The notes beneath the pieces were generated by a model, which made no database searches, was not told where the DNA came from, and worked only from the letters and a program-made list of their open reading frames with translations. The translations under genes were made by a program, and so were the position numbers. Shown in pieces: positions 1,993 through 5,873 of a stretch of 5,873 nt of DNA. Source of the DNA: Zoogloeaceae bacterium (lineage in GTDB: Bacteria; Pseudomonadota; Gammaproteobacteria; Burkholderiales; Rhodocyclaceae). The DNA is taken from positions 1 through 5,873 of the forward strand of contig JAITDH010000253.1 of NCBI GenBank assembly GCA_031282665.1, read 5' to 3'. Numbering within the stretch: the first letter of the stretch is position 1; every line of letters starts with the position of its first letter.

Positions 1993-2901
1993 ATGGAAAT
2001 ACTGGATTTGGTTGGCAATACCCCGCTGCTCGCCCTGCCTGCCGTGTCGAAGAATGTGGCGGCGAGGGGTGTTTCGCTCTTTGCCAAAGCGGAGTTTCTC
2101 AATCCGTCGGGATCGTGCAAGGACCGTGCCGCGAAGGCGATGATCCTGAGCGGGCTGCATGAAGGGTTGCTCACGCGGGGCAAGACGATCATCGACGCGA
2201 CGAGCGGCAACACCGGCATCGCTTACGCGATGATCGGCGCGACGCTTTCCTTTCCGGTAAAGATCTACCTGCCCGCCAACGCCAGCATCGAACGCAAGGG
2301 AATGATCCGGCATTACGGCGCGGAAATTGTCGAGACAAGTCCGCTGGAAGGCTCGGACGGCGCCTATCGGGCGGCGAAGGAAGAATTCGCGGCGCATCCC
2401 GGCAAGTATTTCTATCCCGATCAATATCACAACGACGCGAACTGGCAGGCGCATTACGCGACGACCGCGCCGGAAATCTGGGCGCAAAGTGAGCAGAAGG
2501 TTACCCATTTCATTTGCGGGATGGGCACTTCCGGCACCTTCGTCGGCGTATCCAGACGGCTCAAGAAATACAAAGCCGATATCCAGACGATCGCGATCCA
2601 GCCCGATTCGCCATTCCACGGAATCGAAGGCACGAAGCATATGGCGAGCACATTGAAGCCGGGGTTTTACGACGAAACCTTGCAGGACGGGGTGATCGAA
2701 ATAAGCACCGAAGGGGCTTATGAAATGAGCCGCCGGCTGGCGCGTGAAGAAGGCATTTATGTCGGCATAAGTTCCGGCGCGAATGTGCTGGGCGCCCTGA
2801 AGCTGGCGGAAACCCTGCCGGGCGGCTCGGTGGTGGTCACGGTTCTGTGCGATACCGGGACCCGTTATATCACCGATCAATTCTGGAGCGGCCATGATTG
2901 A
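1993..2901 (+). CDS. cysM: CysM-type PLP cysteine synthase, probable carrier-dependent partner
   Basis: A 302-residue fold-type II PLP synthase, paralogous to but clearly different from the CysK just upstream. The PLP lysine is K43 in GSCKDR, the substrate loop TSGNTG is at 70-75, the phosphate loop GMGTSGT at 176-182, and the SSG serine is S261. The KPGPHKIQGIGAGF segment of CysK is replaced by PDSPFHGIEGTKHM (204-217). That suggests a different acceptor or sulfur donor, as in mycobacterial CysM, which uses O-phosphoserine and the thiocarboxylate of CysO. The adjacent JAMM, carrier and E1 genes point the same way. The start is fixed by an in-frame TAG at 1966-1968, with no other start codon in between, but no good ribosome binding site precedes it. 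Its last 8 bases overlap the JAMM gene. Substrate preference is inferred, not visible. Confidence 0.88.
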   Translation: MEILDLVGNTPLLALPAVSKNVAARGVSLFAKAEFLNPSGSCKDRAAKAMILSGLHEGLLTRGKTIIDATSGNTGIAYAMIGATLSFPVKIYLPANASIERKGMIRHYGAEIVETSPLEGSDGAYRAAKEEFAAHPGKYFYPDQYHNDANWQAHYATTAPEIWAQSEQKVTHFICGMGTSGTFVGVSRRLKKYKADIQTIAIQPDSPFHGIEGTKHMASTLKPGFYDETLQDGVIEISTEGAYEMSRRLAREEGIYVGISSGANVLGALKLAETLPGGSVVVTVLCDTGTRYITDQFWSGHD

Positions 2902-3322
2902 ATTGCCTCCGACATTGGGCGAAGCGATCCGGCGGGAAGGGGAAGAAAGCTATCCCAACGAATGCTGTGGCTTCATCCTGGGCCAGGTCAGGGAAGACGG
3001 CGTGAAAGAGGCGGAAACCTTGATTCCGGTCAAGAATGCGCGCGAGGCCGAAGAGCAATATCACCGCTTCGAAATAGGGCCGGAAGATTTCATGCGGGCC
3101 GAGAGCCAGGCGCGCAGGGAAAATCGGGAAATCGTCGGGCTTTATCATTCGCATCCCGATCATCCATCCCGTCCTTCCGAATACGACCGGGAACACGCCC
3201 TGCCTTTTTATTCTTACATCATTGTCAGCGTAAATGAGGGCGCGGCATCCACGATCGACAGTTGGGAACTCGACGCAGCGGATCGTTCACGTTTCAGCGA
3301 GGAGAAAATAGTATGGCAATAA
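2894..3322 (+). CDS. mec: JAMM/M67 family metallopeptidase, Mec-like
   Basis: A 142-residue single-domain zinc peptidase of the MPN+/JAMM family. The full metal motif is present: upstream catalytic E23 in NECCGF, then HSHP with H85 and H87, S95 and D98 in PSEYD. In Mycobacterium, Mec cleaves CysO-cysteine to free cysteine and carrier. Related peptidases (QbsD, HcyD) also trim residues beyond the Gly-Gly of their carriers. Here it lies between the synthase and the carrier gene, overlapping them by 8 and 10 bases, which implies tight translational coupling. GGAG at 2885-2888 is 5 bases before the ATG and supports this start. Family assignment is firm; release of cysteine from the carrier is inferred from context. 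Confidence 0.9.
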   Translation: MIELPPTLGEAIRREGEESYPNECCGFILGQVREDGVKEAETLIPVKNAREAEEQYHRFEIGPEDFMRAESQARRENREIVGLYHSHPDHPSRPSEYDREHALPFYSYIIVSVNEGAASTIDSWELDAADRSRFSEEKIVWQ

Positions 3323-3597
3323 AGATTCAAATCCCCACCGCCTTGCGCGGTTTTACCGATCGCAAGGGAGAAATATCGCTGGAAGGCGATACGGTCGGCG
3401 CGGCGCTTGCGGCATTGACCCAGGCATACCCCGACATCAAGCCACATCTTTATCATGATGATGGCGAATTGCGATCCTTCATCAATGTCTATGTCGGGGA
3501 AGCCAACATAAAGAAGCTGGATGGGCTTGCCACCAAGGTCCCCGAAGGCGGCGTCATCATGCTGGTGCCCGCCATTGCGGGAGGAAGTAGCCACTGA
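3313..3597 (+). CDS. cysO: CysO-like MoaD/ThiS ubiquitin-fold sulfur carrier
   Basis: A 94-residue beta-grasp sulfur carrier. Landmarks shared with mycobacterial CysO as I recall it are an N-terminal IPTALR (7-12), GDTVGA (25-30), FINVYV (56-61), GLAT (71-74) and a PAIAGG end (86-91). The C-terminal glycine of such carriers is adenylated and turned into a thiocarboxylate that donates sulfur. Unusually, the Gly-Gly (90-91) is followed by Ser-Ser-His before the stop, so the active end is masked until three residues are removed. The start at 3313 is chosen because AGGAG (3300-3304) lies 8 bases upstream; an earlier in-frame ATG at 3262 would add 17 residues foreign to the family. The TGA stop shares its last base with the next ATG. 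CysO identity rather than general MoaD/ThiS rests on these landmarks and the neighbours. Confidence 0.9.
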   Translation: MAIKIQIPTALRGFTDRKGEISLEGDTVGAALAALTQAYPDIKPHLYHDDGELRSFINVYVGEANIKKLDGLATKVPEGGVIMLVPAIAGGSSH

Positions 3598-4787: not shown

Positions 4788-4814
4788 TGTTGAATTTCAT
4801 CCAAGGAGAAAATG

Positions 4815-5768
4815 ATGTCGGAAAAAGTATTGAAAGCATTGGGAAGCGATGCCGCTTATCAACTGGCGAACGTCAACAAGACACGCCCTCAATATGGCGC
4901 GTTGACGCCCAAATGGTTGTCGAGAATCCTGGAATTCAAGGGACTCGAAGCGGGCATTTATCGCGTGAATCGGGTGGTGGAAGGAGAAACGCCGCTCGAC
5001 GTCCTGTGCAGCCAGGACCCGAAGAAAATAGATATTCCGCAAGGGTATATCGAATACGAAACCAAGCCGCGCGAATACCGGCTTTCTTCGATCTCCACGA
5101 TCGTCAATGTGGACACGAAGATCCAGGATGTCTATAGCTCGCCTTACGACCAGACGCAGGAACAAATCGCGCTGGCGGTGGAAAGTCTGAAAGAACGGCA
5201 GGAAAGCCAAATCATCAATAACGACGATTATGGTCTCCTGAAAAACGTGGCGGACAGCCAGCGCATCCAGCCTCGCTATGGCCGCCCGATGCCCGACGAT
5301 CTGGACGAGCTGATTACCAAGGTGTGGAAAGATCCCTCTTTCTTTCTCGCCCATCCGCGCGCCATTGCGGCATTCGCGCGTGAATGCACCCGTCGCGGCG
5401 TACCGCCGGCCACGGTGAATATCGCGGGCGGCACCTTCATTTCCTGGCGCGGCATTCCCATCATTCCGACGGATAAACTCTTCGTGGATGGCCTCAAGAA
5501 TCCGGCGGCCAAGACCGGGAAAACCAATATCCTGCTCGTGCGCACGGGAGAAGCCAAACGCGGCGTGATCGGCCTGTATCAAACAGGATTGCCGGGCGAA
5601 CAGGCGCGGGGAATTTCGGCGCGTTTCCGCGGCATAGACGATAACGGCATCGCATCGTATCTGCTCTCGGTCTATTGCTCCGCGGCGATTCTGGCGACGG
5701 ATGCCCTGGCGGTATTGGAAGACGTGGAAGTCGGTGATTATTATGACTATACCCAAAACCCCGTATAA
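4815..5768 (+). CDS. srpI: Family 2A encapsulin shell protein (SrpI type)
   Basis: An HK97-fold shell protein that self-assembles into a nanocompartment. It matches the SrpI / major membrane protein I family along its whole length. Recognisable segments are GIYRVNRVV near residue 50, a long helix with ESLKERQES near 125, FFLAHPRAIAAFARECTRRG near 180, the WRGIPIIPTDKL A-domain segment near 215, and YLLSVYCSAAILATDALAV near 285. Its 317-residue length leaves no room for a cyclic-nucleotide domain, so it is type 2A rather than 2B. Characterised 2A shells (Synechococcus, Acinetobacter) enclose a cysteine desulfurase, and the Acinetobacter one stores elemental sulfur. Two ATGs are adjacent (4812 and 4815). 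AAGGAG (4803-4808) is 6 bases from the second but only 3 from the first, so 4815 is preferred. It follows moeB by 27 bases and is probably cotranscribed. Confidence 0.96.
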   Translation: MSEKVLKALGSDAAYQLANVNKTRPQYGALTPKWLSRILEFKGLEAGIYRVNRVVEGETPLDVLCSQDPKKIDIPQGYIEYETKPREYRLSSISTIVNVDTKIQDVYSSPYDQTQEQIALAVESLKERQESQIINNDDYGLLKNVADSQRIQPRYGRPMPDDLDELITKVWKDPSFFLAHPRAIAAFARECTRRGVPPATVNIAGGTFISWRGIPIIPTDKLFVDGLKNPAAKTGKTNILLVRTGEAKRGVIGLYQTGLPGEQARGISARFRGIDDNGIASYLLSVYCSAAILATDALAVLEDVEVGDYYDYTQNPV

Positions 5769-5873
5769 TCCCGTCGATTACGGATTGCCCTCCGAGGCGG
5801 ATCTGGCGCGTCTTGCCGCCTCCCTCTGGTTTGCCGAATCCGATGTCGAGCAAGCCGCGGATTTCGAAGCGGA
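5743..5873 (+). CDS. N-terminus of probable encapsulin cargo cysteine desulfurase, cut by window edge
   Basis: The frame opens at 5743 and stays open for 43 codons to the right edge. GGTGA (5733-5737) lies 5 bases before the ATG; a GTG at 5734 is a less likely start. It overlaps the shell gene by 26 bases in another frame. The visible residues are proline-poor after position 16, acidic and probably flexible, with a short hydrophobic helix LARLAASLWF at 21-30. None of the PLP domain is in view. The call rests on two points: family 2A shells are typically followed by a cysteine desulfurase (SufS-like) carrying a long disordered N-terminal cargo-loading domain, and this segment looks like such a domain rather than an enzyme core. 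Another cargo cannot be excluded from the sequence shown. Confidence 0.75.
   Translation, partial: MTIPKTPYNPVDYGLPSEADLARLAASLWFAESDVEQAADFEA

What the first reader, a model, noticed from the sequence alone, without database searches (positions are those of the whole stretch)
1993..5873. Encapsulin nanocompartment in one operon with a complete sulfur-carrier cysteine pathway
CysM-type synthase, JAMM peptidase, CysO-like carrier, MoeB-rhodanese, family 2A shell and the probable cargo run in one direction with overlaps of 8, 10 and 1 bases, a 27-base gap, then a 26-base overlap. Known parts: 2A shells hold cysteine desulfurase, and the CysO/Mec/CysM/MoeZ route makes cysteine from a carrier thiocarboxylate. 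Inference: the compartment supplies or buffers sulfur that is drawn off through the rhodanese domain and carrier, so stored sulfur is returned as cysteine without free sulfide. I do not know this coupling to have been described.
Basis: partly seen in the sequence, partly recalled or inferred. Interest (0 to 1): 0.8.

Follow-up and report, generated by a model that had tools for sequence, protein, structure and literature searches.

The report
Sulfur-storage shell with carrier-protein cysteine pathway
Many gut bacteria carry, in one transferable gene block, a protein shell thought to store sulfur together with a pathway that hands sulfur from a small carrier protein to new cysteine, which suggests how stored sulfur could be returned to use.

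Summary
The cut-off last frame matches the N-terminus of the cargo cysteine desulfurase in the nearest relative (31 of 40 residues), where a serine acetyltransferase follows. The linkage is conserved: 45 of 57 loci of the window's shell clade with at least 3.5 kb upstream hold all four carrier genes, against 0 of 23 loci of other family 2 shells. Loci with three or four of them carry eight phylum labels. Of six clade loci with none or one, five lie in genomes that hold the module elsewhere. 117 of 120 homologues run on 1-46 variable residues and two loci fuse it to MoeB-rhodanese, so JAMM probably also matures the carrier. Storage-and-return is plausible but unproven: direction is open, and the 3.7 A pore reported for SrpI argues against direct protein contact. 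Both halves are known; I found no report of the combination in the papers searched. New variant of a known kind.

The parts
911..1888 (+). CysK-type cysteine synthase A (probably the host's own gene, outside the cassette)
   Evidence: TIGR01139 449.9 bits, cut-off 350.95; nearest named relatives Azoarcus/Zoogloeaceae MAGs at about 89%; L001 homology starts only at 1972
1922..1950 (+). perfect 11-pair hairpin between CysK and the cassette, terminator-like
   Evidence: the number of terminator-like sites in the window is near the shuffled mean (8 against 6.9), so weak
1993..2901 (+). CysM-like cysteine synthase, proposed CysO-thiocarboxylate user
   Evidence: PALP 244 bits; best NCBIfam cysM 327.6, below the cut-off 394.2; PLP Lys43 in 60 of 62 rows, rest gaps
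2894..3322 (+). JAMM (M67/Mec-like) metallopeptidase
   Evidence: Prok-JAB 89 bits; Glu23, His85, His87, Ser95, Asp98 kept in 62-63 of 66 rows; best PDB match 2kcq 7e-31
3313..3597 (+). CysO-like sulfur carrier, ends ...VPAIAGG-SSH
   Evidence: best PDB sequence match Mtb CysO 3dwg_C 5e-14; AlphaFold model matches 3dwg_C at TM 0.86; AGG in 73 of 73 rows
3586..3594 (+). C-terminal cap SSH after the Gly-Gly
   Evidence: 117 of 120 homologues have 1-46 residues after AGG
3597..4787 (+). MoeB/E1-rhodanese fusion (MoeZ/Uba4 type)
   Evidence: ThiF 274 bits + Rhodanese 44 bits; MoeB subfamily NF004281 291.4, cut-off 266; E1 Cys197 in 76 of 76, rhodanese Cys353 in 75 of 76 rows; best PDB match Uba4 6yub
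4815..5768 (+). family 2A encapsulin shell protein (alternative ATG at 4812)
   Evidence: NF041162 477.9 bits, cut-off 380; best PDB matches 8t6r and SrpI 6x8m
5743..5873 (+). start of the cargo cysteine desulfurase (N-terminal targeting region, cut by contig end)
   Evidence: 31 of 40 residues identical to the L001 desulfurase N-terminus

Best explanation
This is one end of a horizontally moving sulfur cassette, CysM - JAMM - CysO - MoeB-rhodanese - family 2A shell - cysteine desulfurase (- serine acetyltransferase). Proposed working: the desulfurase sits in the shell and strips sulfur from cysteine, depositing sulfane sulfur. Outside, the rhodanese domain picks up sulfane sulfur, most likely through a small diffusible species because the pore is too narrow for protein contact. 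JAMM trims the capped carrier to expose Gly-Gly; the E1 domain adenylates it; the rhodanese sulfur turns it into a thiocarboxylate; CysM joins it to an activated serine (O-acetylserine where the acetyltransferase is present); JAMM clips cysteine off. Sulfur is thus banked and returned as cysteine without free sulfide. Shown here: gene content, order, conserved linkage, intact catalytic residues, and the cap. Inferred: loading, trimming, sulfur transfer, and the direction.
For: Linkage: all four carrier genes in 45 of 57 clade loci with >=3.5 kb upstream, against 0 of 23 outside. Tree: 88 clade loci plus the window split from 26 others at SH-aLRT 100; linked/unlinked needs 3 changes with partial and unknown rows set aside. 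Of six clade loci with no or one adjacent carrier gene, five are in genomes holding the module elsewhere. Shell distances correlate with those of CysM, JAMM, CysO and MoeB-rhodanese (r 0.72-0.75) as well as with the cargo (0.71) over 45 complete loci. Catalytic residues intact. Cap in 117 of 120 carriers; two CysO-MoeBR fusions and one JAMM-CysO fusion. The S. elongatus operon pairs CysK, acetyltransferase and a free rhodanese with shell and desulfurase; this variant has a carrier-based counterpart of CysK and rhodanese.
Against: Co-location does not prove flux. The SrpI pore is 3.7 A (passage). JAMM, carrier and CysM score below the NCBIfam cut-offs of their nearest models, and MoeB-rhodanese below that of MoeZ. 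CysM has Lys215 where, by my reading and recall, CysM enzymes have an arginine. The acetyltransferase is near in 30 of 54 clade loci with >=3.5 kb downstream. Nearest neighbours of shell and carrier genes agree in only 18-22 of 45 loci. One clade genome (G874/L156) has shell and desulfurase but no JAMM match. Three of 120 carriers have no cap.
Confidence: 0.5

Rival explanations
1. Feed direction: the carrier module makes cysteine from sulfane sulfur acquired elsewhere, and that cysteine charges the encapsulated desulfurase. It fills the store rather than emptying it.
For: Flanks of some loci hold sulfur acquisition genes: cysteine ABC transporter and sulfate-binding protein in Aliarcobacter cibarius; sulfate-binding protein and a sulfide-dehydrogenase-like flavoprotein in L153; sulfonate/nitrate-type ABC genes in L011 (these ABC models matched below their cut-offs). 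Acetyltransferase often follows the desulfurase.
Against: Cysteine made this way and at once desulfurated costs ATP for no gain unless the two steps are separated in time; flank genes were examined in only a few loci.
Confidence: 0.25
2. Shared regulation only: both systems answer sulfur limitation or oxidative stress and share an operon, with no sulfur passing from one to the other.
For: Each half exists alone: shells with a desulfurase but without CysM, JAMM and CysO (23 of 23 outside loci with >=3.5 kb upstream) and the carrier module without a shell (Iyer 2006 Table 1 row 4c, passage). In the genomes of four clade loci the module lies away from that shell.
Against: Nearly fixed gene order, overlapping genes and parallel distances across phyla exceed what co-regulation needs.
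Confidence: 0.17
3. The carrier acts as a ubiquitin-like modifier (SAMP-like) of shell or cargo, removed by the JAMM enzyme.
For: Carrier scores 59.4 bits to SAMP1 (cut-off 60) and JAMM 71.2 to archaeal desampylase (cut-off 130); the cap makes it look like a pro-ubiquitin.
Against: The closest sequences and folds in the PDB are CysO proteins, with MoaD-like proteins and SAMPs next; linked CysM and a rhodanese domain with its cysteine point to sulfur transfer.
Confidence: 0.05
4. The MoeB-rhodanese and carrier serve molybdenum cofactor or tRNA thiolation and are linked by accident.
For: Mycobacterial MoeZR sulfurates both MoaD proteins and CysO (PMC3227635, passages).
Against: The linked partners are CysM and JAMM; none of the 13 flank proteins scanned from L011, L021, L029, L062 and L153 was recognised as a moa or tRNA-thiolation protein (a small sample, three without any match).
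Confidence: 0.03

Closest known systems
Family 2A encapsulin SrpI with cysteine desulfurase CyD (Synechococcus elongatus; PMC8049743)
   Same: Shell family, adjacent desulfurase with an N-terminal extension, acetyltransferase and rhodanese in the neighbourhood.
   Different: Shell 53.6% identical; S. elongatus has a free rhodanese and CysK, here MoeB-rhodanese, CysO, JAMM and CysM; the clade's cargo extension lacks the Y-F/Y-F-L motif (0 of 82) and carries FPE[F/L] in 56 of 82 (0 of 28 outside).
M. tuberculosis CysO-CysM-Mec+-MoeZR cysteine pathway (PMC3227635)
   Same: Same four functions; carrier fold closest to Mtb CysO (TM 0.86).
   Different: The Mtb CysO chain ends at Gly-Gly, here it is capped; linked to an encapsulin; an acetyltransferase downstream suggests O-acetylserine instead of O-phosphoserine.
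Uncharacterized ThiS/MoaD + E1-rhodanese + JAB + cysteine synthase operon, Iyer et al. 2006 Table 1 row 4c (PMC1779556)
   Same: Same four-gene module.
   Different: No shell or desulfurase mentioned in the passages seen; the word desulfurase does not occur in the main text.
Capped sulfur carriers QbsE, PdtH and HcyS, trimmed by a JAMM partner (recalled, no call)
   Same: Residues after Gly-Gly plus a JAMM peptidase beside the gene.
   Different: Recalled caps are 1-2 fixed residues; here they vary from 0 to 46 among 120 homologues and are not conserved.

Membership tests
Family 2A encapsulin | shell matches the curated family 2A model | tested here: met
   NF041162 477.9 bits, cut-off 380
Family 2A encapsulin | no cNMP-binding domain (unlike 2B) | tested here: met
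   Pfam shows only SrpI-like; family 2B model 372.3, below its cut-off 400
Family 2A encapsulin | adjacent cysteine desulfurase with N-terminal extension | tested here: met
   only 43 residues in the window, matching L001; L001 protein 783 bits, narrowly under the cargo cut-off 800
Family 2A encapsulin | cargo motifs LARLANEFFS and AASPYYFLDG reported for CyD | tested here: inconclusive
   window has LARLAASLWF; a loose pattern for the first motif hit 2 of 79 clade extensions and one for the second hit none; a second pattern for Y-F/Y-F-L hit 0 of 82 clade and 7 of 28 outside, while FPE[F/L] hit 56 of 82 and 0 of 28
Family 2A encapsulin | self-assembling shell that loads desulfurase | not testable with these tools
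   needs expression
CysO/CysM/Mec/MoeZ pathway | beta-grasp carrier with Gly-Gly | tested here: met
   fold and AGG met
CysO/CysM/Mec/MoeZ pathway | Gly-Gly is the C-terminus, as in Mtb CysO | tested here: not met
   as encoded, SSH follows; capped in 117 of 120 homologues. It would be met after trimming, which is not shown
CysO/CysM/Mec/MoeZ pathway | JAMM metal-binding residues | tested here: met
   62-63 of 66 rows, the rest gaps except one Pro at the Glu column
CysO/CysM/Mec/MoeZ pathway | E1 domain plus rhodanese active-site cysteine | tested here: met
   76 of 76 and 75 of 76
CysO/CysM/Mec/MoeZ pathway | CysM uses O-phosphoserine | tested here: inconclusive
   Lys215 in 61 of 62 rows, its equivalence to an arginine in other CysM being my reading; acetyltransferase nearby
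CysO/CysM/Mec/MoeZ pathway | NCBIfam equivalog cut-offs for CysM and MoeZ | tested here: not met
   CysM 327.6 against 394.2; MoeZ 459.4 against 647; the MoeB subfamily cut-off is passed (291.4 against 266)
SAMP ubiquitin-like modifier | SAMP1 model cut-off | tested here: not met
   59.4 against 60
Capped carriers (QbsE/HcyS type) | residues after Gly-Gly removed by JAMM | not testable with these tools
   residues present; removal needs an assay

The most novel reading that the evidence does not exclude
The cassette is the withdrawal pathway of the encapsulin sulfur store. Sulfur deposited by the enclosed desulfurase is the long-unidentified sulfur source of a CysO-type carrier pathway, and a JAMM enzyme switches the carrier on by removing a variable cap, so that opening the store is controlled by proteolytic maturation. 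It would be a protein-bound deposit-and-return cycle for sulfur, spread by horizontal transfer among gut bacteria.
Probability: 0.3. Interest if true: 0.85.

Novelty: new variant of a known kind. Interest (0 to 1): 0.62.

Why it matters
Two open questions meet here. For encapsulins that store sulfur, how the sulfur is taken out again is, as far as I know, unsettled. For the CysO cysteine pathway, the sulfur source was stated to be unknown in 2011 (PMC3227635, passage). A gene block that joins the two, found with at least three carrier genes under eight phylum labels, makes both testable with one set of purified proteins. The capped carrier adds a concrete, cheap prediction (JAMM cuts after AGG).

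Tried and rejected
Host genome search: none held. A pattern search for the published CyD motifs found little in the clade, so cargo loading is argued from position and family; a clade motif (FPE[F/L]) turned up instead. AlphaFold of the L011 JAMM-CysO fusion was not run because the aligner stacked the two domains on each other (A2). The L076 CysO-MoeBR fusion model has pTM 0.59 and low confidence at 87-115, the stretch that holds the junction; it says only that the linker is not ordered. A plasmid search for shell-free relatives of the JAMM gene, to get control carriers, gave no useful neighbour in the one record opened, so how common caps are outside this clade is untested apart from two CysO crystal chains that end at Gly-Gly. 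My first count took one gene per frame and missed carriers fused in frame; recounted by domain. A regular expression for the JAMM motif had wrong spacing and printed False for all rows; residues were counted. Fisher p 1e-11 is not used as evidence because loci are related.

Rows dropped and limits: seven duplicate loci (L159, L160, L162-L164, L182, L183) were left out of the counts; short versions of loci later refetched with flanks were replaced by those. Weak or long-frame hits of genomes G185, G459, G1685, G1791, G1799 and G1917 (frames of 471-549 aa except G459, 351 aa; probably mostly family 2B) were not extended and not counted; three similar ones (L165-L167) are in the outside group. 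Of 32 plasmid records with shell matches 7 were fetched. Only the best 80 of 181 confirmed stretches were kept by the tool. Three of the 117 loci (L166, L167, L184) were left out of the tree as too short a match. Presence means a same-strand profile match over my own bit cuts within 6.5 kb of the shell centre; the 450-bit line between clade and outside is also mine. Of 173 carrier homologues 120 were listed and examined.
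Full report
WHAT IS THERE. The window holds, on the + strand, a CysK gene (911-1888) and then a tight run: CysM-like 1993-2901, JAMM 2894-3322, carrier 3313-3597, MoeB-rhodanese 3597-4787, shell 4812/4815-5768, and a frame from 5743 that leaves the contig. Family assignments come from Pfam and NCBIfam. The shell passes the family 2A cut-off and not the 2B one. JAMM, carrier and CysM are clear by Pfam but fall below the NCBIfam cut-offs of their nearest models; MoeB-rhodanese passes the MoeB subfamily cut-off (291.4 against 266) but not that of MoeZ (459.4 against 647). 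These names are therefore class names.

THE MISSING PART. The nearest relative, L001, is a contig of a Burkholderiales MAG with 84.8% DNA identity over window 1972-5869. There the last frame continues as a 512-residue SufS-type desulfurase followed four bases later by a serine acetyltransferase (the acetyltransferase scores 162.9 against a cut-off of 210.65 for cysE and 149.6 against 150 for EpsC). The 43 window residues match its N-terminus.

HOST AND TRANSFER. The window's CysK is closest, among named relatives, to Azoarcus/Zoogloeaceae MAGs at about 89%, while its shell is 87-90% identical to many Treponema shells. Homology to L001 begins 21 bases before CysM and not upstream. Of 45 complete loci, nine have their nearest shell under another phylum label. 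I infer that the cassette moves between phyla; MAG binning errors could imitate some of this. Most records are MAGs that I take, from recall of the naming and from taxa such as Leadbettera and Termitinemataceae, to be from termite guts; one title names goat jejunum, one bears the label 'Lapin', and A. cibarius was from a poultry carcass.

IS THE LINKAGE REAL. The genome-contig scan used the shell alone, so loci were not chosen for the carrier genes; 181 stretches encoded a relative and 80 were kept. I added family 2A hits from eight samples of genomes: 7 of 369, 3 of 198, 4 of 249, 4 of 299, 3 of 247, 7 of 149, 7 of 149 and 12 of 299 genomes matched at E<=0.001 (each sample includes its seed genome and two overlap), fetched with flanks where useful, and seven plasmid records. 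After removing duplicates, 117 loci were scored with profiles of the cassette genes. 89 fall in the window's shell clade (over 450 bits; the lowest is 495 and the highest outside is 430). In the clade, with at least 3.5 kb upstream: CysM 46, JAMM 49, CysO 50, MoeB-rhodanese 52, desulfurase 54, acetyltransferase 25 of 57; all four carrier genes 45 of 57. Outside, same condition: CysM, JAMM and CysO 0 of 23, MoeB-like 1 of 23, desulfurase 23, acetyltransferase 15, CysK 4. The one outside MoeB hit (L166) is an E1 without rhodanese about 5 kb from a probable 2B shell, beside a JAMM gene of 64 bits, under my cut of 90; it is the only JAMM, CysO or CysM match of any listed score among the 28 outside loci. 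Counting loci whatever their upstream length: 59 of 89 all four, 65 of 89 at least three, 0 of 28 outside. The order CysM-JAMM-CysO-MoeBR-shell-desulfurase occurs in 27 loci as such and in 22 followed by the acetyltransferase, besides smaller classes. Median gaps, measured to profile starts and so approximate, are -1, 6, 5, 52 and -2 bases. The 65 loci are labelled Spirochaetota 24, Bacillota 12, Synergistota 11, Thermodesulfobacteriota 5, Myxococcota 3, Planctomycetota 2, Pseudomonadota 1, Campylobacterota 1 and 6 without a label.

EXCEPTIONS. Twelve of the 57 lack one or more of the four. L023, L028, L055 and L156 have none beside the shell; L073 and L168 only MoeB-rhodanese. In the genomes of L023, L028, L055 and L073 a CysM-JAMM-CysO-MoeBR block lies outside the fetched flanks, and L168 comes from the MAG whose other shell locus, L062, has the full block. 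L156's genome has no JAMM match. A Fibrobacterales locus (L013) reads shell-desulfurase-CysM-JAMM, then about 700 bases without a carrier match to the contig end. L041 and L065 have CysO and MoeB-rhodanese; L057, L066 and L074 lack CysM only. In the A. cibarius plasmid two insertion elements sit inside the block, one between the E1 and rhodanese parts.

TREE AND CO-INHERITANCE. In a tree of 115 shells (window and 114 loci) the window's clade (89 rows, window included) is split from the other 26 at SH-aLRT 100. With linked meaning two or more carrier genes and unlinked meaning none with >=3.5 kb upstream, 3 changes are needed when partial and unknown rows are set aside; against all other rows the linked label needs 14, shuffled mean 34 (quick method, several long branches). 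Over 45 complete loci, distances of the shell correlate with those of CysM, JAMM, CysO, MoeB-rhodanese (r 0.72-0.75; between phyla 0.40-0.50) and desulfurase (0.71; between phyla 0.36). Nearest neighbours agree in only 17-22 of 45, so some reshuffling or noise exists.

THE CARRIER IS CAPPED. The window carrier ends AGG-SSH. Of 120 listed homologues (173 found) all have the P-A/S-I/V/L-AGG motif, 117 continue for 1-46 residues and 3 end there. Of 72 loci, 70 continue and 2 (L034, L038) end there. I see no common sequence in the added residues. In L074 and L076 the carrier runs in frame into MoeB-rhodanese, and in L011 JAMM runs in frame into the carrier. The E1 and sulfur-transfer steps act on a C-terminal glycine (PMC3227635, passages), so something must cut after Gly-Gly; the linked JAMM enzyme, with intact residues, is the obvious candidate. 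Two crystallised CysO chains end at Gly-Gly. In the model of the window carrier, residues 91-94 have pLDDT under 50, and the closest PDB folds are Mtb and Amycolatopsis CysO.

THE CARGO EXTENSION. Of 82 clade desulfurases with a readable extension, 56 contain FPE[F/L] and none a Y-F/Y-F-L; of 28 outside, 0 and 7. The clade may load cargo through its own signal.

HOW IT PROBABLY WORKS. See Best explanation. The S. elongatus operon has CysK, EpsC, shell, desulfurase, rhodanese. The clade has CysM plus carrier and JAMM in place of CysK, and an E1-fused rhodanese in place of the free one. I read this as the same job done with carrier-bound instead of free sulfide. That family 2A shells store elemental sulfur is known to me from a title (Benisch et al. 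2024, in the reference list of PMC10960027) and a sentence in PMC12407261 (passage); the paper itself is not held. Direct contact between the rhodanese domain and the enclosed enzyme is doubtful given the 3.7 A pore (PMC8049743, passage); Andreas and Giessen suggested a rhodanese acting at the capsid exterior (PMC8346489, passage).

WHAT IS KNOWN. The four-gene carrier module is row 4c of Iyer et al. 2006 (PMC1779556, passages). Acetyltransferases and rhodaneses are called the most enriched accessory components of these desulfurase operons (PMC8346489, passage). Searches for encapsulin with CysO (2 papers, neither relevant by title and abstract start), with 'sulfur carrier' (0), with MoaD (0), with cysteine synthase (2, both cited here), and a looser one with MoeB (41 papers, 20 listed) showed no description of the combination. 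MoeB, ThiF, ubiquitin, JAB and 'sulfur carrier' do not occur in the main text of PMC8346489, nor MoeB or rhodanese in that of PMC8049743 (section 5 read). Supplementary tables were out of reach, and most subscription papers are not in the library.

VERDICT. The metabolic reading is the most likely one but its direction is open. New variant of a known kind.

Noticed in passing
L001 10929-12467 and other clade desulfurases: FPE[F/L] in 56 of 82 clade cargo extensions and 0 of 28 outside; possibly a clade-specific loading signal different from the published CyD motifs.
   Followed up: partly
L153 3406-7154 and 13107-14192: In a genome of G008's phylum with one 2.28-Mb contig, a sulfide-dehydrogenase/SQR-like gene, a second MoeB-rhodanese-like gene and an EAL-domain gene follow the acetyltransferase, and a sulfate-binding protein gene precedes CysM.
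   Followed up: partly
L011 12401-13615 and flanks: A Cys/Met gamma-lyase-type PLP enzyme lies between desulfurase and acetyltransferase, and sulfonate/nitrate-type ABC genes flank the cassette.
   Followed up: partly
L050 4524-5718, L074 12771-14009, L166 15013-16196: Separate E1-plus-JAMM gene pairs lie near the shell, different from the cassette's own.
   Followed up: no
G006 (L030, L035, L051, L184): One Synergistaceae MAG has four family 2A shell matches on four contigs, two of them cut by contig ends, so at least two and perhaps more shell genes.
   Followed up: no
L168 5067-5969: Divergent second shell (longest end branch of the tree, 0.91) in the MAG of L062; the tool flagged one TGA, probably the gene's own stop, since a stop-free frame covers profile 4-307.
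   Followed up: partly
window 2-445, - strand: 148-residue open frame with hydrophobic stretches, no Pfam or NCBIfam match at 0.001.
   Followed up: no
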